A stretch of 30,828 nt of DNA. It comes from a virus. Position 1 is the stretch's first letter, and each line of letters starts with the position of its first letter. The notes beneath the pieces were generated by a model. The model ran no database searches, was not told the DNA's origin, and saw only the letters and a list, made by a program, of their open reading frames with translations. The stretch is from positions 1 to 30,828 of IMG/VR virus record IMGVR_UViG_3300015371_000127; one strand, 5' to 3'. This document shows, piece by piece, positions 6,105 through 28,987 of the stretch. Position numbers and translations under genes: made by a program.

Positions 6105-8045
6105 TCATTGCTGTGCCAACGCCGCCATTACCTCGTCGCTGACGCTTTTCCAATCCCTGAATTTAGGTTGCCGGAATATGCGAACGCTGTCGTACCATAT
6201 CGTTTTGTTTCCTTTGAGGCCCCAACGGAAGTCAGGGTCCCACGACAACAGCAACCACGTCGGCACGCCAAGCGCACCAGCAAGATGCGCAACGGCGGTA
6301 TCAACTGTGATCACATGCCCAAGTGCTGTAATCGCTGCCGCTGTCATAGCAAACGAGTCGAACTGACGCGCACTATTGTCGAGGTTGAACACCGGGCCGT
6401 ACTCACGCACCAAATCGTATAGGTAGCGCTTCGGTATATCACGCGAGTACGGGCGCTCGCTCAGGTACGACCCCTGAATGCACAGCCCAAGCTTCGCACC
6501 GTTGAGCGGATCATCAGGTGTCTTGCCGAGCCTGACGTTGCCCCTGCCGCGCCAATTCCTAACCAGCAACTGATCAGCGCGGAGATAACAGTCAGCACGG
6601 CGCGCAATCATCTGACGATCAGCCCCGACAGCCCACGGTACGCTCGCGAGCGATAACTGTTGCGTGTAATGGGGCAGCGTACGCCCAACACGAAACAGGC
6701 GTCCTCTCGGTACCACATTTGACTGCTCGAATAGTTCGAACAGCTCCGGGCGACATTCGAGGATGGCGTTAGGAGCGCGATCCAACACTTCATTCATGAA
6801 GCGCACAAACATGATGTTATCACCGAAGCCTTGTTCGCTCCAGATCAACACAGGCTCGTCCGTCTGCTCCCCCGTCCAGCGCTTGATATGGTCAGGGAAT
6901 GTACGATCGCCGCCGAACTGACGCTTGTCGGGCAACTGATGACGTGTCTCGTACCCGTCCCACGCTTCTTTGCTGTAGTCGCCGTCCTGCAACCGCATGA
7001 GCGACTTCAACGCAATCGTCGGCACGTGCCCAGGCGCGCGATCGAGGTTCTCTTTGATGAGCGCTCGCGCCTGCGCGCGACGCTGCATCAAGTTGCAGTA
7101 GTGTGCCGTGATCCAACGCGATTGCAGATCGTCGGGGTTGCGCGTGAAGTATTTTGTAAACCGTTTGATCTCACGCGTGTACATTTCGTCGTCGTCGCGC
7201 AAATCGGCGACTTCATCAGCGCGACGTACCTCCCACCCTTCCTTGTCGGGGATAGCAACGGTCATCACCGACACGAGGTTGCCGAAAATGTTGCGCTTGT
7301 TCTCGCGGTAGTTGTCGCTGTTGAACATGTAGGGCTTGTGCCACCACATCCTGTACCCATGATCAACCAACCACGCGACCATGTCCTCGCGCTTTTCGTC
7401 AATCTCGTTCTCGACGTAGATCACAGGGTCACAGCGCTTGATCGTTTGCTCTGCACCCTTCAACACCTCGAGCTCATGCCCGTCGACATCGATCTTGATC
7501 AACCGGCAGCGCTCGAGGTTGAGGCTGTCGATCGTGACGCAAGGGACTGTGAAGTCCCCCTTATTGATCTCGTCCTTGTCGTACGCGTGCATGGCCGACT
7601 CGGCCCTGACACTGATCTTCCCATCCTTGTCCGATGCAGCAACGGGATACGTTCGAACGATGTCCGTCAACCCGTTTTGATCAATGTTACGCGTCAACAG
7701 TTCGACGTTTGCCGCTGACGCTTCGAACGCGACGACGTGCCCAACAAGTTTGTTGCGCTGCGGTTCCATGTCAGCGGGTAGTACTGAGCCGTACGGCGCG
7801 ACAATGCGCGCCATCGCAATCGTATGCGCGCCGATGTTGGCGCCCACGTCAATCGCCACGTCCCCCGGTCTGAGGACCGTTTTGAGCACGACGACTTCAC
7901 CTTCGCTGTACTCCCCGTACTCGCGTAGGCTAAGCCCAACGAGTTCATCATCAGCGAACACGGTAAACTTACCGTGACGCGTGTCGGTGTCGCATGTCGG
8001 CATCCCGCTGACATCGCGCCACTCCCCGCCAAGCGTGTCCAGCAT
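6105..8045 (-). CDS. FkbM-type methyltransferase fused to a glycosyltransferase-like domain (646 aa)
   Basis: The N-terminal domain is a class I SAM methyltransferase of the FkbM family: motif I AIDVGANIGAHT at residues 65-76, the acidic FEAS at 107-110, and IKIDVDGHE at 183-191. Family members O-methylate sugars or polyketides. Residues ~270-360 are helical and TPR-like. The C-terminal domain has IWSEQGFGDNIMFVRF and a late ITVDTAVAHLAGALGVPTWLLL (578-600), as in the donor-binding region of GT9/heptosyltransferase-like proteins. I chose the ATG at 8045, which overlaps the upstream stop as TAATG and has GAGGG before it; a GTG at 8069 would add 8 residues. The gene sits between the oxygenase group and the proline-rich fibre. 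Building and capping a glycan on a virion protein or the host surface is inference. Confidence 0.85.
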   Translation of the reverse strand: MLDTLGGEWRDVSGMPTCDTDTRHGKFTVFADDELVGLSLREYGEYSEGEVVVLKTVLRPGDVAIDVGANIGAHTIAMARIVAPYGSVLPADMEPQRNKLVGHVVAFEASAANVELLTRNIDQNGLTDIVRTYPVAASDKDGKISVRAESAMHAYDKDEINKGDFTVPCVTIDSLNLERCRLIKIDVDGHELEVLKGAEQTIKRCDPVIYVENEIDEKREDMVAWLVDHGYRMWWHKPYMFNSDNYRENKRNIFGNLVSVMTVAIPDKEGWEVRRADEVADLRDDDEMYTREIKRFTKYFTRNPDDLQSRWITAHYCNLMQRRAQARALIKENLDRAPGHVPTIALKSLMRLQDGDYSKEAWDGYETRHQLPDKRQFGGDRTFPDHIKRWTGEQTDEPVLIWSEQGFGDNIMFVRFMNEVLDRAPNAILECRPELFELFEQSNVVPRGRLFRVGRTLPHYTQQLSLASVPWAVGADRQMIARRADCYLRADQLLVRNWRGRGNVRLGKTPDDPLNGAKLGLCIQGSYLSERPYSRDIPKRYLYDLVREYGPVFNLDNSARQFDSFAMTAAAITALGHVITVDTAVAHLAGALGVPTWLLLSWDPDFRWGLKGNKTIWYDSVRIFRQPKFRDWKSVSDEVMAALAQQ

Positions 8046-8248
8046 TAACCAGCCCTCGGGGAACGCCACAACGTCGGGGTGTAATGCTTGCCCTCATACG
8101 AGTATGCAGCGTGACGCTGCCACTTACCCAACACGATCACCCCGCGATCGTCCATCATCTCGATGGTCTCACCTTCGTTGGGCTGTGAGTCACGAAAGTC
8201 GTTCCACCCAACAGTCATATTGGGAGCCGAAAGGTTATGCACTGCCAT
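8045..8248 (-). CDS. Small hypothetical protein, 67 aa
   Basis: The ATG at 8248 is preceded by AGGAGG with a 5-base spacing, one of the stronger ribosome binding sites in the window. The product is acidic in the middle (GETIEMMDDRGVIVLGKW) and aromatic near its end (AAYSYEGKHYTPTLW), giving a small beta-barrel-like pattern with no cysteine cluster or membrane segment. It is coupled by TAATG to the FkbM fusion and follows the oxygenase by 9 bases, so the three are probably co-translated. Function unknown. Confidence 0.72.
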   Translation of the reverse strand: MAVHNLSAPNMTVGWNDFRDSQPNEGETIEMMDDRGVIVLGKWQRHAAYSYEGKHYTPTLWRSPRAG

Positions 8249-16453: not shown

Positions 16454-16536
16454 GATGTGAGTAACCATACGATCAACGCAATCGGAAGAAGCGCAGCCCA
16501 AGCAACGAGTAGCACCTCTTCGAGGTGACTATGCAT
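16450..16536 (-). CDS. 28-aa single-helix membrane peptide
   Basis: The ATG at 16536 has GGAGG 6 bases upstream, located in the last codons of the peptidase gene, making this one of the best ribosome binding sites in the region. The peptide (MHSHLEEVLLVAW, continuing through a hydrophobic stretch to WLLTS) is one transmembrane helix. Its stop overlaps the start of the ETR1-like gene as ATGA, so it probably also serves to couple translation from the peptidase into that gene. Function unknown. Confidence 0.68.
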   Translation of the reverse strand: MHSHLEEVLLVAWAALLPIALIVWLLTS

Positions 16537-17386
16537 CGCCCTCCTCCTTCAGAGGTGCTGTTGGGTTATCTGCCCACTCCTGCAACTTCTTCGCTGCATC
16601 GCTGTCAGCGAACCCTTCCACGATGCGAATGACCCAAAAGTCGCTCGCGTAGGCAGGGTTAGTGATATAGCTCTCGTGCATATAGCAGTCGCCTTTGTCG
16701 GCCCAATCAGGGCCCCACGAGTTGCGCACGAGGAAATGGTTGGGCTTCTGCCCATACCCAACAAACAGCATGCAGTGCCCGCCGAGCATGCCCTCCATCC
16801 TATTCGGGATTGGCACAACACCATCGGGTGTGACGTGACCAAAGGAATTGTACAGCGTCACGCCAAGGATGATGGGCACACCTTGTGCGAGCACGGTCTT
16901 TACTGCTTGCACATTAACCGGGACCGCTTCGTACACGAGCGCCTGATTTAGCAGCGCATCGGTGTAGAGCGTATCGGGTGGCACCTCCGTAAACTTGCTT
17001 GGGCCGTCATCATACGGCCATAGATCTTCGTGCGCGATTCCTAACTTGGCAGCACACTTCACAGCGTCGCGTATCTCGAGCCCGCTGTCCTCCGTCAATG
17101 ACGTGTTTTCGAGCCGTCGAGCATCCGCGTACAATTGGAGCCTACTCAAGGGGACGTCGGGCAGGCCTAGTTTCTTCATGCTGTAGCGCATCGCTTGCAC
17201 GACGCCATGAGTGACGCAGGTACCGAGGTTCCCCTGGTCCATCACCGGTGGCAGATCCGGGCGTAAATCAACTACAGGAGGCAGCGCTCTTTTGCGCGGC
17301 ACCTTGAACACCCTGTCTCGAGCGTCAGGCAACTGACGCTTCCAACCAAACCCACGCACACGTCGCGGCGCTAGATCGAACGGCAT
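16529..17386 (-). CDS. Papain-like (C1A) cysteine peptidase, 285 aa
   Basis: All papain active-site elements are present: the oxyanion Gln and nucleophile in MDQGNLGTCVTHG (Q51, C57), the catalytic His in GGHCMLFVGYG (H204) and the Asn in LVRNSWGPDW (N222). Spacing fits a complete C1A fold. Only ~45 residues precede the active-site Gln (with PPVVDLRPDLPPVMDQG), so there is no long pro-domain, and no signal peptide is seen. The ATG at 17386 has GAGGA 6 bases upstream. It lies in the membrane-protein cassette. Roles in virion protein processing, host protein cleavage or lysis are possible; none is shown by the sequence. Confidence 0.9.
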   Translation of the reverse strand: MPFDLAPRRVRGFGWKRQLPDARDRVFKVPRKRALPPVVDLRPDLPPVMDQGNLGTCVTHGVVQAMRYSMKKLGLPDVPLSRLQLYADARRLENTSLTEDSGLEIRDAVKCAAKLGIAHEDLWPYDDGPSKFTEVPPDTLYTDALLNQALVYEAVPVNVQAVKTVLAQGVPIILGVTLYNSFGHVTPDGVVPIPNRMEGMLGGHCMLFVGYGQKPNHFLVRNSWGPDWADKGDCYMHESYITNPAYASDFWVIRIVEGFADSDAAKKLQEWADNPTAPLKEEGDA

Positions 17387-19863: not shown

Positions 19864-20487
19864 TTACGCCTCCCACGCCCAACGTGGGCGTGCTATCTTT
19901 TGCAACACAAGTTCAATTTCGTAGCACCCAACGGGGTGCTTATCTATCGTTTCGTTGTAGTCGTAGTCACGATCGTTATCGCACAGGTGGCGCACACGAT
20001 AGCAATTGGGCGCGAGCACCTCCTCAACCGTCGCCAGCAATGACGCTGGTGTGTAGAAACGATAGTGATCGTTGTTCCACTTCGACGGCGGTCGTGCCTT
20101 GCGCTCGTACAGGAACTTGTGGGGCACGATGATGATGATGTACCCACCCACCTTCACCACCCTGTACCACTCCATGAGGTTGAGCGCGTACTTCTGCAGG
20201 TGTTCAAACACGTGCGACGTGTAAACCGTGTCGACGCTGTTGCTCTCGAACGGTAGGATGATCCCGTTGTAGTTCTCAAGGTAGTGTTCGTTGTGCGCGT
20301 CGCTTTCGATACCGAATGCATTCGGCAAAAGTTTACGAATGCCGCACCCGATGTCGAGCACGAGTTCACCGCCGCAGTACTTTTTGATGAACCCACTCCT
20401 GTACCTAGCCTCGAATGACTTCGCGCTTTCGCTACGAACGTCGCGCATGCGACTAAGTAGTTCCTCCGCCCTCTCCGCCTCCGCCAT
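19864..20487 (-). CDS. Class I SAM-dependent methyltransferase, 207 aa
   Basis: A Rossmann methyltransferase core is present: motif I LVLDIGCG (42-49), the acidic GIESD (59-63), the post-II LPFESNSVDTVYTSHVFEHL (78-97) with the Methyltransf_11-type HVFEHL, then VVKVGGYIIIIVPH. The ATG at 20487 has AGGAAGG close upstream and lies inside the portal gene (35-base overlap); a longer reading to 20568 would overlap more. The substrate is unknown. Given the glycosyltransferases and FkbM protein further on, a sugar or small molecule is as likely as DNA or protein. No DNA-methyltransferase NPPY or DPPY motif is seen. Confidence 0.86.
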   Translation of the reverse strand: MAEAERAEELLSRMRDVRSESAKSFEARYRSGFIKKYCGGELVLDIGCGIRKLLPNAFGIESDAHNEHYLENYNGIILPFESNSVDTVYTSHVFEHLQKYALNLMEWYRVVKVGGYIIIIVPHKFLYERKARPPSKWNNDHYRFYTPASLLATVEEVLAPNCYRVRHLCDNDRDYDYNETIDKHPVGCYEIELVLQKIARPRWAWEA

Positions 20488-22132
20488 TGCCTTCCTCGCT
20501 CTCTGTCTGTTGACGCTTGCGCCTACCCCGTCGACGTTTCTTTTTCTTCTGAACCTCAGCGTCAGCAACCTCCGTCACTGTAAACTTCACCCCATTGAGC
20601 ACGATCACATCACCCACCTTGTAGGGCTCCGAGTCGCTCGCCTTGGGCTTGGGTGCTGGCAGCGCCTTCTGTGCACCCGGTTGACCAACACCACCAGGTG
20701 CAATCACAGGCTTGGGTGTAGGCTTCTTCGCCGTCGTCATTGACGCGTTTGCCGACGTGACGGCAGCACCAGCCTTCTTCCCTTCAATTCCCAGCTTCTG
20801 CTCAGGAATTGTCTCCTCCACAAAATCATCCTCAGCCTCAGCATCTTGAATTGCTGCCTCCAAGCCGGGGAACCAACCTTCTTCAATAGCACGGTTCTGC
20901 ACACCCTGCGCAAGCGCTGAGGTTTGTACGAGGCCAGCGTTGACCAAGTTCATCGCTGCCTCTGTGATAGTCTTGATCATGCCTGCCTTGGCGATCTCGT
21001 CCATCTGCCACAACGATGACCATTCGTAAAAGATCTCCTCGTCGATTGAACCAAGCGCATCCACCTGCAACACCTGGTCAAGGACCGCCATCGCAGGCGT
21101 TAGGTACATCTCTTGATCGCTCTTGATGCGATCGTAGTAGTTGCGCAGGTCACTATCACCTGTCGCGTTCATGCCCTGTGGTGACCTGCCATGCAGGCGC
21201 GTAGCAGGGATATCCGCTGCACCGCTGACGATCAGCAAGAACGCCTCGAGCACCTCAGGCATGCCTGAGAAGGTGAGTTGCGTACGCTCCCACTCCTCCT
21301 CCGCATCCATCACAACGGCATTGGTCGTTGACTTTGCAGCGTTGAAGAATGCCAAGCGCTCGGTGAACTTATCGCTGTGCTCCTTCGTCTGCATGATCTC
21401 CGACAGGCGCGGCACCTTGATGAAGTCAACCTTCGCCTCATGGATGAGGGTGGCGATTGATTGCGATGTCACCGCCGCTGCCTGCACAGCATCGTTAACC
21501 ACTTGCAGCACTGAGTCACCCCAACCCTCGTCTGTGTTGGCAATGCTCGGAGCCATGTTGCCGCAGAAACGCACGACGCGCGATGGGTGTACGCGTACAG
21601 ACTGCTGCAAGTTATTGTTTTGTCCCGACGTACGGACCTGATAAAACCGCGGCAACCCAAACCATGGGGACGAGATGTCGGTCTCTGTGCCGTCAAGCCC
21701 ACTCAGGTCATGTCGTGTGACGACGTGCAAGTATTGTAAACCACCCTCACCGATGCGCTCGGGGTTCAATTCCTTTGCTGGGTCGTTCTCACGTGTACCA
21801 ATGACGATGCCCGCTCCCCCGTACAGGCGTGCCTTGAGCAACGCATCCCGCACCTTCATTTGCACGAGGTGCTTAGTCTCGCACGCCTCCAACTTTTCGA
21901 TCTGATCGTTCTCCGCTTGCCACTCACGCCACTGCCGCGTCATGTCCATTGCAGGGATCGTGACGATCTTACGCGCTATCCAGTCGTTAGCGAAAGCCGC
22001 TTCGAGCTGGTCGATTGTCATGATGTTGCGAACGTAGGTGTTGTAACGATTCTTATCGTTAGCCAACATCATCCCCGTCATGAAGTTTGACAAGGTATCG
22101 AACCAACCTTTAACTGCTGTCGTGACGGCCAT
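20453..22132 (-). CDS. Portal protein, DUF1073 type (559 aa)
   Basis: The N-terminal half (TIDQLEAAFANDWIARKIVTIPAMDMTRQW, ARLYGGAGIVIGT) and the late SGAADIPATRLHGRSPQGMN and DSDLRNYYDRI match the DUF1073-type phage portal family. It forms the dodecameric DNA gate at the head vertex and the docking site for terminase. The last ~90 residues are unusual for the core: a proline/alanine linker, then a strongly basic KKKKRRRGRRKRQ run and a Gly-rich end, possibly DNA- or scaffold-interacting. The start at 22132 has no strong Shine-Dalgarno and lies just beyond the repeat array. The family has also been discussed in connection with anti-CBASS Acb1-like naming; I keep the portal call. Confidence 0.88.
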   Translation of the reverse strand: MAVTTAVKGWFDTLSNFMTGMMLANDKNRYNTYVRNIMTIDQLEAAFANDWIARKIVTIPAMDMTRQWREWQAENDQIEKLEACETKHLVQMKVRDALLKARLYGGAGIVIGTRENDPAKELNPERIGEGGLQYLHVVTRHDLSGLDGTETDISSPWFGLPRFYQVRTSGQNNNLQQSVRVHPSRVVRFCGNMAPSIANTDEGWGDSVLQVVNDAVQAAAVTSQSIATLIHEAKVDFIKVPRLSEIMQTKEHSDKFTERLAFFNAAKSTTNAVVMDAEEEWERTQLTFSGMPEVLEAFLLIVSGAADIPATRLHGRSPQGMNATGDSDLRNYYDRIKSDQEMYLTPAMAVLDQVLQVDALGSIDEEIFYEWSSLWQMDEIAKAGMIKTITEAAMNLVNAGLVQTSALAQGVQNRAIEEGWFPGLEAAIQDAEAEDDFVEETIPEQKLGIEGKKAGAAVTSANASMTTAKKPTPKPVIAPGGVGQPGAQKALPAPKPKASDSEPYKVGDVIVLNGVKFTVTEVADAEVQKKKKRRRGRRKRQQTESEEGNGGGGEGGGTT

Positions 22133-22138
22133 TGGTTT

Positions 22139-22310
22139 GGTGCTCTCTTACGGGCGTGCTTCACTCAGTTGCGATGGTGCTCTCTTAAGATTTGGTTCAC
22201 TTCTCCTGAATGGTACTCTCATTTACAATGGTTCACTTCCGCTTACTGGTTCTCTCACGCTTTATGGTTCACTCACTACCACTGGTACGCTCGGGGAATT
22301 TGGTTCACTC
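22139..22310 (-). repeat. Tandem array of 10 degenerate 18-bp repeats, alternating two types
   Basis: On the plus strand, nine-base cores begin at 22139, 22158, 22176, 22194, 22212, 22230, 22248, 22266, 22284 and 22302, with a period of 18 (19 once). Two core types strictly alternate apart from small changes: GGTNCTCTC and GGTTCACTY, so the true unit is 36 bp repeated five times. Nine-base AT-rich spacers between cores are not conserved. On the coding (minus) strand the cores read GAGAGNACC and RAGTGAACC. The array fills the gap between the portal start and the microgene at 22305-22451. Function unknown; candidates are a protein-binding, packaging or replication site. Confidence 0.85.
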
Positions 22311-22451
22311 ATTCCACTTGCCGTCCTCTGTCCCCGCACCACACTGCTGACAAACCCATTCTTCGGGCACTACGTCTTCAACGCGCGGGGGATGTACCGG
22401 TTCAACTTCGCTGTTGCAGAACGGGCAGCGCTCACAGAAACCTTCGATCAT
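22305..22451 (-). CDS. 48-aa zinc-ribbon peptide inside the repeat array
   Basis: The ATG at 22451 opens a frame with two cysteine groups: CERCPFC near residues 6-12 and CQQC at 34-37, separated by a hydrophobic-acidic linker (PPRVEDVVPEEWV). The CPFCNSE start resembles Lar-like restriction-alleviation and similar one-zinc ribbons of phages. A GTG at 22460 is an alternative start. AAGGGA abuts the ATG, too close for ideal initiation. Both ends of the gene run into repeat cores, so it looks embedded in, or inserted into, the array. A DNA-binding partner of the repeats is an attractive but untested idea. Confidence 0.6.
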   Translation of the reverse strand: MIEGFCERCPFCNSEVEPVHPPRVEDVVPEEWVCQQCGAGTEDGKWNE

Positions 22452-22453
22452 TC

Positions 22454-22559
22454 CCTTCACTCACTCTAAAGATATGGTGCGCTCTACCTATTTGGTTCAC
22501 TCTGAAGGATATGGCACTCTCTCTTATTCTGGTTCGCTCGCGCATGCTCAGGTGCTCTC
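22454..22559 (-). repeat. Second block of the alternating 18-bp repeats, next to the terminase stop
   Basis: Cores begin on the plus strand at 22454, 22476, 22494, 22513, 22531 and 22551, with spacings of 22, 18, 19, 18 and 20. They read CCTTCACTC, GGTGCGCTC, GGTTCACTC, GGCACTCTC, GGTTCGCTC and GGTGCTCTC, so the same two core types alternate as in the larger block. The register is less regular. It lies between the terminase stop at 22571 and the zinc-ribbon microgene, and is probably one array with the block at 22139-22310. Confidence 0.78.
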
Positions 22560-22570
22560 ACGGTCTCTGG

Positions 22571-24094
22571 CTAGCGAACCCAACTCATGGTCGTGTCGTA
22601 TGTACTGCCGAGGGTTAGTTTATTAAACGCACCGCTCGACGCATCTACCTGATCCTTGTGCTTACCTGCAGGGAATGACTCGAGCTCGTCGAAGTACGCC
22701 CGTACCCAATCGCCTGCCTTCACCGACACGTTGCCATTCTGCACTTGTGCTGAATACGGTTCAGCACGTACCTCCTTCGTCCCCGTAACTTTGTCAGCGA
22801 ACACACGAAAACCAGCGAGGTTGCGTATCGTGCTCTCCGCCGACTCCTTGCCACCTGACCCAGGCTCCTGCTCGACGTACACCTCGAGCGATCCCTGACA
22901 CAAGTGACGATCGTTCGTCACTTGCTGTTTGATGCGCTTCTCCCTTTCGAGCGCGCCCCATTGTCCTCGTGACACGTCTTCAACTACGAATGTGCCGTCC
23001 TTCATCTTGTGCATCAGCACCATCGCAGTGTACGCGCCATCCTCCTTCGTCGCTGCCTTGTCTATGTACCTACACGAGCGCAGCACGTTCGCACGATCAA
23101 CCGATTGGATGATGTTGATACGATCGACAGGGAATATACCACCACCTTTGATGATGGGGTTTTGCTGATACTCCGCTGACCATGACGCTTCGCTATGCAC
23201 AGCGCGACGTTCCATCAGGAAGTCAAGCGGCTTGTGCTCAGGGAAGAGCTCCTCACCTACCTCCCTGTACCCTTCTTTAACCGACCAGTCACCCTCCTCA
23301 GCAATGGCAGGGTACTTCAACACCTTCGTCTTAGGGAAATACTCCAACCACCTGCCTACGGGATCATCGAGGTGCCAGCGAGTCATGATGATGATCATGC
23401 CCGCCTCTTTGCTGAAACGAGCGAAGAAGTCAGCGACAAACCAATTCCATGTCTTGTCGCGTATCGTTGGGCTCTGCGCCTCAGCGTAACCTTTGATCGG
23501 GTCGTCGATCACGCCTAAGTCAAGGCCCATGCCCGTGATCGCACCATTGATCGTGGTGTTGCGAAACGAGCCCTTCTTGCCCATGACTTCGAACACGCCG
23601 GTGTTGCGTCGAGCGCCCACCATATCGCGGTCACCAATGTCACGAATGCGCGTACGCCCAAACGTACCTTGATATGCTGGCGACAACATCATGCGTTGCA
23701 GGTACAGGTTAGCAGCGGTACCCAGTTCATCGCTATACGACGTGAAGATAACGCGGAAGTCAGGATTCTTACCCAACACCCAAGCGATGAAGTCGCGCAC
23801 CTGCTCACTCTTGCCGTGCTGCGGTGGTGCCTGAATGACAAGTTTAGGACGCTTGCCATTGCACAGGTCTATATAGAACTGCTGCAGGTGGAATGCCAAG
23901 TCCTCCTGCCACCACCCACGCAACATGTCAGGATGAACTAAACGACGAAAACCCCAAAACGAGCGACGTGCTTCCGCGTAGAAAACCTCAGCATACGCTC
24001 GTGCCTGCGGCGCTGTCGTAATGAACTTTGAACCGTCCTCCCCCTTGCGTACCTTGATTAGACGCTTAGGGACATCGGTAGAAGTTGCCGTCAT
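22571..24094 (-). CDS. terL: Terminase large subunit, 507 aa
   Basis: The ATPase domain has a Walker A-like QAPPQHGKSEQ (88-98) and Walker B LDLGVIDDP (191-199), followed by the coupling-type MTRWHLDDP (237-245). The C-terminal RNase H-like nuclease has RYIDKAATKEDGAYTA (342-357) with D345, VYVEQEPGSGG (405-415) and HKDQVDASSGAF (479-490) with D481 and D484. This matches the TIGR01630-type large terminases (psiM2 ORF9-like). It cuts concatemers and drives DNA into the prohead through the portal. I chose the ATG at 24094; no good Shine-Dalgarno is visible and it overlaps the BA14K-like gene by 29 bases. No small terminase gene is recognised nearby. Confidence 0.93.
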   Translation of the reverse strand: MTATSTDVPKRLIKVRKGEDGSKFITTAPQARAYAEVFYAEARRSFWGFRRLVHPDMLRGWWQEDLAFHLQQFYIDLCNGKRPKLVIQAPPQHGKSEQVRDFIAWVLGKNPDFRVIFTSYSDELGTAANLYLQRMMLSPAYQGTFGRTRIRDIGDRDMVGARRNTGVFEVMGKKGSFRNTTINGAITGMGLDLGVIDDPIKGYAEAQSPTIRDKTWNWFVADFFARFSKEAGMIIIMTRWHLDDPVGRWLEYFPKTKVLKYPAIAEEGDWSVKEGYREVGEELFPEHKPLDFLMERRAVHSEASWSAEYQQNPIIKGGGIFPVDRINIIQSVDRANVLRSCRYIDKAATKEDGAYTAMVLMHKMKDGTFVVEDVSRGQWGALEREKRIKQQVTNDRHLCQGSLEVYVEQEPGSGGKESAESTIRNLAGFRVFADKVTGTKEVRAEPYSAQVQNGNVSVKAGDWVRAYFDELESFPAGKHKDQVDASSGAFNKLTLGSTYDTTMSWVR

Positions 24095-24446
24095 ACCCAC
24101 GGTAGAGCCCCGTCTGAATGTTCCACGAGCGAAAGCGTCGAGCGCAATACGCGATCTGATCACCCGACAATTGAGGCGCTGCCTGCACCTGAACCTCCGG
24201 CGGATACGGTTGCGTAACGACAGGCTGTTGCACGATCACGGGTTGCTGGACCACCACAGGCTGTGGTGGGCGATAGTACGGCTGCGGATAATAGTAAGGC
24301 CGCTGTCGTTGCTGTATCGCACCTGAAATCACGCCACCTACCACTCCCCCAAGCGCTCCCCCGGCAAACCCACCCCAAAAGGCGTCGGCACGTGCTTGCG
24401 TAGTGGCACACACGAGCGCGAGCACAATCAGGAATAACCTTTTCAT
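24066..24446 (-). CDS. BA14K-like secreted protein, 126 aa
   Basis: A Sec signal (MKRLFLIVLALVCATTQARA, cleavage likely after ADA) is followed by a glycine zipper (GGFAGGALGGVVGGVISGAI), a Pro/Gln/Tyr-rich linker, and a C-terminal domain IAYCARRFRSWNIQTGLYRG continuing to YDGNFYRCP. The C-RFRS-x(4)-TG-Y-GYDG-x-C pattern is that of BA14K proteins of Brucella and other Rhizobiales, reported as immunoreactive or lectin-like. I chose the ATG at 24446 with AAGGAG 6 bases upstream; two nearby upstream ATGs in frame are alternatives. It overlaps the terminase start. An envelope-modifying role in the host is inferred. Confidence 0.82.
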   Translation of the reverse strand: MKRLFLIVLALVCATTQARADAFWGGFAGGALGGVVGGVISGAIQQRQRPYYYPQPYYRPPQPVVVQQPVIVQQPVVTQPYPPEVQVQAAPQLSGDQIAYCARRFRSWNIQTGLYRGYDGNFYRCP

Positions 24447-25284: not shown

Positions 25285-25656
25285 TTAGGGTTGTGCAGGC
25301 GTGTTCGCTGCAACAGCGGCAGCAAGCGAGTCTGACGACCCTCTGAGTTGATCGGCTAGCGCCTGCAGCGCTGCCGGGTCTGTTTTGAGCGACTCGATCT
25401 GAGCCGCAAGCCCAGTGAGGAGAGTGATAGCAGATTGATCGACCGCCGTGTTGCGCTCGACCTCCGCCTTCAACGAATCCAAGTCTGCCATGATGGCCTC
25501 CTTTGTTTGTGTGGCTAGCGTTGTCAGCATATCAAGCTTCTGCCCGATGTCCTGCAATGCGTTAATGAACTTCGGCATGAGCACCGCAAGCGCATTGATC
25601 TTCACCTCAATCGAACCAAGGCGCTCGGTGATGCGTTCGTATGCTAAGAGATCCAT
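25285..25656 (-). CDS. Coiled-coil protein with strong internal start, 123 aa (68 aa short form)
   Basis: The long form starts at the ATG at 25656. It is helical and charged throughout with coiled-coil character (ERITERLGSIEVKINALAV, LQDIGQKLDMLTTLAT), and its second half is MADLDSLKAEVERNTAVDQS continuing to an Ala-rich tail AAAVAANTPAQP. An in-frame ATG at 25491 has a perfect GGAGG 5 bases upstream, so a 68-residue C-terminal product is probably made too. Alternatively the gene is a fusion of two. Short proteins beginning MADLxxLxxEV are common in phages and often encoded near structural genes. Function unknown. Confidence 0.72.
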   Translation of the reverse strand: MDLLAYERITERLGSIEVKINALAVLMPKFINALQDIGQKLDMLTTLATQTKEAIMADLDSLKAEVERNTAVDQSAITLLTGLAAQIESLKTDPAALQALADQLRGSSDSLAAAVAANTPAQP

Positions 25657-25775
25657 TTGTATACCACCCACAACAGCGCCATTGCCATACTACCAAACGT
25701 CCAACCATATGCGAACCCAGACCACCACGCCCGCCTCACACATGTTGTGAACGTCGACCAAATGGTGCTACTCAA
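25644..25775 (-). CDS. Possible 43-aa membrane peptide with TTG start
   Basis: A TTG at 25775 overlaps the previous stop and has GGAG 8 bases upstream within that gene. The product is Trp- and aromatic-rich with a hydrophobic C-terminal half (WWSGFAYGWTFGSMAMALLW, then VVYKWIS), consistent with one transmembrane helix. It overlaps the start of the coiled-coil gene by 13 bases. It fills an otherwise empty ~115-base gap. The TTG start lowers certainty. Confidence 0.5.
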   Translation of the reverse strand: MSSTIWSTFTTCVRRAWWSGFAYGWTFGSMAMALLWVVYKWIS

Positions 25776-26314: not shown

Positions 26315-26667
26315 CACGAGCCCTTCCTAATCACTGCGGCACATGCCTTAGCAGCAATGACCGCCGTAGCAGCAATGACCGCCGAATGCTTGGCAAACTC
26401 CTTGAACTCCTCTGCCTGCTTATCACAGACCTTAGCGCAGCGTTCACGCTCTGCTAGAACTGCCCGCTTCATGTCCTCGACATAATCAACAAATTCAACC
26501 ATCACTCGCCCTATCGTTGCCGCTGCACCCGGTCGCACGATGCTCGATCCACCGGTCGGTGGGTTTTGAACCGGCGTAGTTGCCGCAGGTTGATTTGGTT
26601 GGTATCTCCTGTTGGAGGGCTGATATCCCTCGGTCAGGGGGTAGCCATCGTATGCCGCTGAGTTCAT
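26314..26667 (-). CDS. ERERC-motif phage protein, 117 aa
   Basis: The N-terminal ~48 residues are disordered, proline/asparagine-rich (GYQPSNRRYQPNQPAATTPV). The C-terminal half has VEDMKRAVLAERERCAKVCD, shared with three other genes in the window, and then an alanine-rich helix created by a perfect 18-bp tandem duplication (26349-26384), ending AAVIRKGS. The start at 26667 has AGGAAGGG within the previous short frame and an ATGA overlap. Proteins with the ERERCAxVC segment are common in phages of Alphaproteobacteria; function unknown. Confidence 0.7.
   Translation of the reverse strand: MNSAAYDGYPLTEGYQPSNRRYQPNQPAATTPVQNPPTGGSSIVRPGAAATIGRVMVEFVDYVEDMKRAVLAERERCAKVCDKQAEEFKEFAKHSAVIAATAVIAAKACAAVIRKGS
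26349..26384 (-). repeat. Perfect 18-bp tandem duplication within the ERERC gene
   Basis: The 18-base unit TAGCAGCAATGACCGCCG occurs twice in a row (26349-26366 and 26367-26384) with no mismatch. It encodes a duplicated AVIAAT-type hexapeptide, keeping the frame. The identity suggests a recent slippage event. Confidence 0.9.
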
Positions 26668-28486: not shown

Positions 28487-28553
28487 TGCACGGTTCCATC
28501 CATTTCATACCATCGATGATGGCGTAGTAAAATCCACCCTCGCACGTACACAT
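28350..28553 (-). CDS. Small Cys-containing protein, 67 aa
   Basis: The ATG at 28553 overlaps the previous stop as TGATG. The N-terminal 25 residues contain CTCEGGFYYAIIDG and MEPCNECRHE, a Cys4 zinc-ribbon arrangement of the phage type. The remainder is polar, probably disordered, and shares DNA with the 28235-28486 frame. No ribosome binding site is visible, so it relies on coupling. The function may be metal or nucleic-acid binding. Confidence 0.6.
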   Translation of the reverse strand: MCTCEGGFYYAIIDGMKWMEPCNECRHELRSDAQIREGYPPHVAQTTRQQDITQDRNKRKGDAQRAA

Positions 28554-28987
28554 CACTGCGGCGCGCTCAGTTCACGCAGGTGTGCATTGATACCACCCGC
28601 CAGCGTACCAACCGTGGTCATAAACCTGGCCTCGACAAAGGCATCGCACGATTGCGTCATCATGAGGTTAAACGGCCCAAGGGGCCCACCCTCACTGCGC
28701 ACGTCAGTGCGATACAGCACAATGATCTTGCCCATGGCATACCCGTACCCAACCTCCCAGCACGTCCCGCTGTCGGGATCTGAGCCATCCATGCATGCAA
28801 CGATCGCGTCGCATTGATCAATGCCACCGACATCGCTGTGGAAGATCACGTTCGGATCGATGCTGTCCTGCTCGTGCTCCTGAGGCAGGAAGCAATCATA
28901 CCCATACGCGCACAACTCACGCTTAAGTTGCAAATTAAACTGCTTCTCAGCGAGCGTGAACAACGGCCCTGCTAGATATAGTTTCAT
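28553..28987 (-). CDS. Nucleoside 2-deoxyribosyltransferase-like enzyme, 144 aa
   Basis: The N-terminus MKLYLAGPLFTLAEKQFN is the family's opening motif. The middle has CDAIVACMDGSDPDSGTCWE followed by VGYGYAMGKIIVLYRTD, matching the D-G-x-x-x-D-x-G-T-x-x-E-x-G active-site block with the catalytic Glu. These enzymes swap bases between 2'-deoxyribonucleosides or hydrolyse nucleotides, and phages use them for nucleotide salvage or base modification. Length is typical. The ATG at 28987 overlaps the previous stop as ATGA. The late NLMMTQSCDAFVE would lie at the substrate site. Confidence 0.85.
   Translation of the reverse strand: MKLYLAGPLFTLAEKQFNLQLKRELCAYGYDCFLPQEHEQDSIDPNVIFHSDVGGIDQCDAIVACMDGSDPDSGTCWEVGYGYAMGKIIVLYRTDVRSEGGPLGPFNLMMTQSCDAFVEARFMTTVGTLAGGINAHLRELSAPQ

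What the first reader, a model, noticed from the sequence alone, without database searches (positions are those of the whole stretch)
22139..22559. Alternating two-type 18-bp repeat array between terminase and portal genes
Sixteen nine-base cores with mostly 18-bp spacing fill the gap between terL and portal. Two core types (on the coding strand GAGAGNACC and RAGTGAACC) alternate, making a 36-bp higher-order unit. The nine-base spacers are not conserved, which suggests that the cores are read by a protein or are RNA or DNA sites rather than codons. The location next to terL, with no small terminase recognised nearby, makes a packaging-initiation site one option. A replication iteron set, a partition-like centromere, or a transcriptional control element are others. 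I know of no described phage array with this alternation.
Basis: seen in the sequence. Interest (0 to 1): 0.8.

Follow-up and report, generated by a model that had tools for sequence, protein, structure and literature searches.

The report
TIGR guide-RNA array in phage packaging genes
The repeats between two phage packaging genes are almost certainly a TIGR array, a recently described CRISPR-like bank of short guide RNAs for a DNA-targeting protein, here lying without its partner gene on the 30.8-kb fragment, a "remote array" arrangement that we find to be common in related viruses.

Summary
In detail: sixteen 9-nt repeats of two alternating types, 18-nt register, 9-nt variable spacers, between terL and portal on the minus strand; 9 exactly spaced pairs against at most 1 in 2,000 shuffles. 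It is not a packaging site or iteron set but a dual-repeat TIGR array (Tandem Interspaced Guide RNA; Faure et al., Science 2025). The pattern occurs in at least 120 IMG/VR stretches and 7 bacterial stretches. Of well-flanked arrays, 89 of 110 lie within 1.5 kb of a ~280-aa Nop-domain protein matching solved TasR (E 5e-23) and TasH, always on the strand reading GAGTGAACC (130 of 130). Edge repeats show the expected covariation. The window's array starts with a truncated edge repeat, TAGCC, fused to the terL stop codon, as in an Acidobacteria isolate. No Tas gene lies in the 30.8-kb fragment. This fits a pattern the founding paper's text does not discuss: in 17 large viral records, each with a Tas, 24 of 50 arrays lie more than 3 kb (up to 60 kb) from it, with the same repeats and equal upkeep, several at terminase/portal junctions. 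Targets were searched for and not found. New member of a known kind.

The parts
22571..24163 (-). terL (terminase large subunit); its TAG stop codon (22573-22571) is fused to the first, truncated edge repeat
   Evidence: PHROG 38 E 1.9e-80, Terminase_6C; sequence
22569..22573 (-). 5'-truncated edge repeat TAGCC (followed by A) at the head of the array, overlapping the terL stop codon
   Evidence: sequence; same arrangement in the KBS 96 prophage and many other arrays
22458..22559 (-). TIGR array block 1: five full repeats (loop, edge, loop, edge, loop) and a 3'-truncated edge GAGTGA; about three guide units
   Evidence: repeat classes
22305..22451 (-). small ORF, 48 aa, two CxxC pairs (zinc-ribbon type), lying between the two blocks where other loci often carry the tas gene; its TGA stop lies inside the first edge repeat of block 2; no family match
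   Evidence: no relative in the array loci
22139..22310 (-). TIGR array block 2: ten repeats, edge and loop alternating; about five guide units
20453..22132 (-). portal protein (Phage_portal_3 / DUF1073); predicted start codon 6 nt after the last repeat
   Evidence: PHROG 146 E 6e-117, PF06381 E 3e-103

Best explanation
The feature is a dual-repeat TIGR array of a tailed phage. It is read in the direction of terL and portal. Repeats of the type RAGYGAACC are the 'edge' repeats and repeats of the type GAGAGNACC are the 'loop' repeats; the 9-nt stretches between them are spacers A and B. By the published mechanism, the transcript is cut within the edge repeats into 36-nt tigRNAs, each holding two spacers; a Tas (Nop-domain) dimer binds edge and loop repeats symmetrically, and spacers A and B pair with opposite strands of an 18-bp DNA target. 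Shown here: the array anatomy, the polarity, the covarying edge pair, the linkage of the same repeat family to a Tas protein in many genomes, and that Tas-distal arrays with the same repeats are common. Inferred: that the array is transcribed with the late genes by read-through from terL (its head is fused to the terL stop codon), that the Tas protein is encoded elsewhere in this phage genome, outside the 30.8-kb fragment, and is the nuclease-free TasA kind seen in the relatives, and that the guides direct it to DNA of competing elements or to regulated sites. The targets are not known.
For: Anatomy as defined for TIGR arrays: two alternating repeats, 9-nt spacers, 36-nt unit, truncated edge at the head. 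Pattern A-B-A (about 23 fixed bases) in at least 120 IMG/VR stretches and 7 bacterial genome stretches, chance about zero; stops in all frames and 19-nt steps, so non-coding. Found by array pattern alone, 89 of 110 well-flanked arrays have a ~280-aa protein of one family within 1.5 kb, co-oriented with the GAGTGAACC strand in 130 of 130 cases. That family: PHROG 4285, PF02371; its profile matches solved TasR 9mty E 4.6e-23, TasH 21kl E 2.2e-14, IS621 8wt6 E 3.4e-6. A ParB-like gene beside some arrays, as the paper's TasParB. Edge repeats covary at positions 4 and 7 (per locus C-G 107, U-A 24, U-G 7, C.A 3) while loops do not pair, as the paper states for edge repeats. KBS 96 isolate: tasA, stop codon, TAGCCA, array, the same head as here. 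Tas-distal arrays: 24 of 50 in 17 records, same repeat consensus as the Tas-adjacent ones, equally well kept. G041 has such an array in its own terL-portal gap, Tas 6.6 kb away.
Against: No tas gene or IS110-like domain in the window's record; the record may be a fragment, so absence is not shown for the phage. No terminator or promoter found by simple scans on the coding strand, whereas the paper describes a terminator after the array. Two loop repeats of the window carry an unusual C at position 4, and three spacers are 10-11 nt. No target found. No expression data.
Confidence: 0.95

Rival explanations
1. Packaging-initiation (pac/cos) region: the repeats are bound by a small terminase or other DNA-binding protein next to terL.
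For: Position between terL and portal; other Tas-distal arrays also lie at TerS/TerL or TerL/portal junctions; no small terminase recognised in the genes scanned.
Against: Most relatives carry the array beside a Tas gene, often several arrays per genome at unrelated places; strict polarity with Tas in 130 of 130; covariation of an RNA pair; L006, a relative with a 47% identical portal, has no array in its terL-portal gap.
Confidence: 0.02
2. It is a TIGR array, but an orphan or relic: the phage has lost its Tas and the array no longer works.
For: No Tas in 30.8 kb; some irregular repeats and spacers; a small unrelated zinc-ribbon ORF sits between the blocks.
Against: 12 of 16 repeats fit the family consensus, inside the range of Tas-adjacent (0.67) and Tas-distal (0.78) arrays; all 17 large array-bearing records examined have a Tas.
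Confidence: 0.15
3. The repeats are codons of a hexapeptide-repeat protein on the plus strand (G-S/T-L every six residues; ORF 22080-22469).
For: One plus-strand frame is open through block 2 and reads GSL/GTL/GAL.
Against: No family match; relatives' arrays have stops in every frame and frame-breaking 19-nt steps; all nine core bases are kept, third codon positions included; it would lie antisense to the terL-portal operon.
Confidence: 0.005
4. Replication iterons or a partition centromere bound by a ParB- or Rep-like protein.
For: Some array loci carry a ParB-like gene.
Against: The ParB-like gene is in few loci and fits the TasParB already described with tasA; many arrays per genome with the polarity of transcription; RNA-type covariation.
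Confidence: 0.01

Closest known systems
TIGR-Tas systems, dual-repeat arrays with TasA (Faure et al., Science 2025, PMC12045711)
   Same: Alternating 9-10 nt edge and loop repeats, 9-nt spacers, 36-nt unit, 5'-truncated edge at the head, covarying edge pair, non-coding, in tailed phages; relatives' arrays sit beside a Nop-domain Tas protein; TasParB-like neighbour in some loci.
   Different: No tas gene within the 30.8-kb fragment: the array lies at the terL-portal junction. The paper describes arrays upstream and/or downstream of tas and extracted 5 kb around it; its text does not mention orphan or distal arrays, terminase or stop-codon fusion. No terminator found at the end of this array. 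A zinc-ribbon ORF splits the array.
IS110-family transposases and bridge RNA
   Same: The Tas family of the relatives matches the IS110 C-terminal domain (PF02371) and IS621.
   Different: No DEDD catalytic domain recognised, and an array of guides instead of a single bridge RNA.
CRISPR arrays
   Same: Repeats interspersed with variable spacers that act as guides.
   Different: Two short alternating repeats, 9-nt spacers, Tas instead of Cas proteins.
Phage pac/cosB repeat sites and iterons
   Same: Short repeated sites in a non-coding gap next to terL.
   Different: Those are sites bound as double-stranded DNA, without linkage to a Nop-domain protein (own knowledge).

Membership tests
TIGR dual-repeat array | Two distinct alternating repeats of 8-12 nt | tested here: met
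   Types RAGYGAACC and GAGAGNACC alternate through both blocks
TIGR dual-repeat array | 9-nt variable spacers (up to 12), about 36-nt unit, most often 5-15 units | tested here: met
   Spacers 9-11 nt, 7-8 units
[quoted passage not shown]
   TAGCC(A) at 22573-22569
TIGR dual-repeat array | Ends with a 3'-truncated edge and a rho-independent terminator | tested here: inconclusive
   Block 1 ends with GAGTGA; block 2 runs into the portal start; no terminator on the coding strand
TIGR dual-repeat array | Shared end motifs (box D/box C) in both repeats; covarying inner pair in the edge repeat only | tested here: met
   Family-wide: GAG...CCR in both, position 4-7 covariation only in the edge type
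TIGR-Tas system | Adjacent gene for a Nop-domain Tas protein | tested here: not met
   None in the window's 30.8-kb record. Met for the repeat family (89 of 110 arrays within 1.5 kb); but 24 of 50 arrays in 17 Tas-bearing records are Tas-distal too
TIGR-Tas system | Array transcribed and processed to 36-nt tigRNAs bound by Tas | not testable with these tools
   Needs small-RNA sequencing
TIGR-Tas system | Spacers A and B pair with opposite strands of an 18-bp DNA target | tested here: inconclusive
   No excess of predicted targets for 1,194 units in 2.6 Mb of array-bearing viral DNA; none for one KBS 96 unit in 257 genomes
Phage packaging site | Conserved at the packaging locus of relatives | tested here: not met
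   Absent from the terL-portal gap of L006; in other viruses the arrays lie at many other places

The most novel reading that the evidence does not exclude
One Tas protein per phage serves a set of guide arrays scattered over the genome (here at the terL-portal junction), each fused to the stop codon of an upstream gene so that different guides are made with different transcription units: a distributed, temporally programmed RNA-guided system, not a single locus.
Probability: 0.45. Interest if true: 0.65.

Novelty: new member of a known kind. Interest (0 to 1): 0.45.

Why it matters
TIGR-Tas systems were described in 2025 and their natural targets, timing and spread are open. A Tas-distal array in the late (packaging) operon, and the finding that about half of the arrays in large array-bearing viral records are Tas-distal with matching repeats, mean that searches limited to 5 kb around tas undercount the guides, and that guides may be expressed with particular gene sets. 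The arrays can be found by their repeat pattern alone, and an isolate (Acidobacteriaceae KBS 96) carries an intact tasA with an array in its genome, which makes native expression testable.

Tried and rejected
Plus-strand hexapeptide ORF (GSL/GTL): rejected, relatives' arrays are non-coding. Packaging, iteron and centromere readings: see rivals. Direct relatives by terL/portal: only distant ones found; the one with both genes intact (L006) has no array between them. Targets: predicted sites (spacer A + reverse complement of spacer B, gap 0-2, derived from the published cleavage geometry) in 1.4 and then 2.6 Mb of viral DNA gave no excess over shuffled pairings (17 against 13-19) and no self-targets; one KBS 96 unit in 257 genomes of its order gave none. 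Divergent Tas in the window: iterated profile, PHROG 4285 and PF02371 all negative. Rfam: nothing. First literature query too narrow, no result. Structure prediction was not used, since sequence matches to solved TasR and TasH were strong enough.

Full report
What is there. The window is a 30,828-bp IMG/VR virus record. All main genes lie on the minus strand; around the finding the order is terL (24163-22571), the repeat region, portal (22132-20453). On the coding strand the region holds sixteen 9-nt repeats in two alternating types, RAGYGAACC and GAGAGNACC-like, on an 18-nt register, with 9-nt spacers in all but three places. Nine exactly spaced pairs were counted, against at most one in 2,000 dinucleotide shuffles. 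A 48-codon ORF with two CxxC pairs splits the array in two blocks.

Relatives by pattern. A 27-base version of the pattern hit 57 stretches of viral contigs, most of which turned out to hold long arrays. Across 159 array-bearing loci the arrays are non-coding: stops in all six frames and occasional 19-nt steps. In about 1,150 edge-type and 1,530 loop-type repeats the two types alternate.

The partner. Clustering the proteins beside the arrays gave one dominant family, ~280 aa, next to the array in 80 of its first 91 members and on 110 of 159 loci, many of which are cut short. Where 1.5 kb of flank exists on both sides, 89 of 110 arrays have it within 1.5 kb, and its strand is the GAGTGAACC strand in 130 of 130 array-gene pairs. 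The loci were chosen by array pattern and not by protein, so this linkage is not built in; some loci are near duplicates of each other, so the number of independent cases is somewhat lower. The family is PHROG 4285 with the IS110 C-terminal domain, and its profile finds the solved TasR (9mty, E 4.6e-23), TasH (21kl, E 2.2e-14) and IS621 (E 3.4e-6). At this length it has no room for an extra nuclease domain, that is, the TasA kind.

Identification. Faure et al. (PMC12045711) describe TIGR arrays: two alternating 8-12-nt repeats (edge, loop), 9-nt spacers A and B, processing to 36-nt tigRNAs, a truncated edge at the head, and an additional covarying pair in the edge repeat. The sequence features are all seen here. 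Positions 4 and 7 of the RAGYGAACC type covary (per-locus majority C-G 107, U-A 24, U-G 7, C.A 3) and those of the other type do not pair (A,A); this names RAGYGAACC as edge and GAGAGNACC as loop. The array of the window starts with TAGCC, a truncated edge whose TAG is the terL stop codon. The KBS 96 prophage has the same head (TAGCCA) at the stop codon of its intact tasA gene. Of 185 arrays, 113 have a codirectional ORF of at least 80 codons ending near the head; the stop codon sits at -15 or -14 from the first full repeat in 39, mostly as TAGCC, TAAGCC or TGAGCC. A ParB-like neighbour, as the paper's TasParB, occurs in some loci.

Why there is no Tas in the window. The record holds no match to PHROG 4285, PF02371 or an iterated Tas profile. 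This proved less odd than it looked. In 17 large array-bearing records, each has a Tas, and 24 of 50 arrays lie more than 3 kb from it, up to 60 kb (reversed-sequence control 0). Two of those records, G013 and G023, carry the same array set and are near duplicates, so the independent number is a little lower. The distal arrays have the same edge and loop consensus as the Tas-adjacent arrays of the same genome and are as well kept: 0.78 of repeats fit the consensus against 0.67; the window has 12 of 16. Flanking genes include TerS and TerL (G005), TerL and portal (G041, the direct analogue of the window), TerL (G042) and a major head protein (G026). The paper's array mining took 5 kb around tas, and its text does not mention distal or orphan arrays; I cannot rule out that its supplement does.

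Mechanism. By the published work the array is transcribed, cut inside the edge repeats, and the 36-nt RNAs guide a Tas dimer to 18-bp sites with each spacer pairing to one strand. Steps shown here are anatomy, polarity, covariation and linkage; expression, processing and targeting are inferred. From the published cleavage geometry a target should read spacer A followed by the reverse complement of spacer B. For 1,194 distinct units I found no excess of such sites in 2.6 Mb of array-bearing viral DNA (17 hits; shuffled pairings 13-19), no self-targets, and none for one KBS 96 unit in 257 genomes of its order. So the purpose remains open: blocking or biasing competing elements, or regulation, are the likeliest for a nuclease-free Tas.

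Verdict. Ordinary in kind, since TIGR arrays are published, but a clear new member with two points that I did not find described: Tas-distal arrays are common and share the repeats of the local ones, and array heads are fused to the stop codon of the gene before them.

Noticed in passing
L087 9840-13245: A TIGR-Tas locus (array, tas, array) sits between the N-terminal and C-terminal parts of the terminase large subunit, which are separate genes in this phage group.
   Followed up: partly
L179 15820-16860 (KB906767.1 about 135820-136820): Isolate Acidobacteriaceae bacterium KBS 96 carries an intact tasA with a TIGR array directly behind its stop codon, probably in a prophage; a cultivable host for native tests.
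   Followed up: partly
L025 9795-10613; also L030, L035, L037: ParB-like proteins beside long arrays (up to 75 repeats), in keeping with the described TasParB.
   Followed up: partly
window 22305-22451: 48-aa zinc-ribbon ORF without family match between two array blocks, its stop codon inside an edge repeat.
   Followed up: partly
window 25285-25671: Coiled-coil-like protein 53% identical to one on an array-bearing Acidobacteria MAG contig (L067), a hint at the host group.
   Followed up: no
window 28553-28987: Nucleoside 2-deoxyribosyltransferase (PF05014), hinting at nucleotide salvage or modified DNA bases.
   Followed up: no
window 16529-17386 and 6105-8069: Papain-type cysteine protease and a FkbM methyltransferase-domain protein among the late genes.
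   Followed up: no
window 26345-26384: Short 18-bp tandem repeat GCCGTAGCAGCAATGACC (2.2 copies, 95%), unrelated to the array.
   Followed up: no
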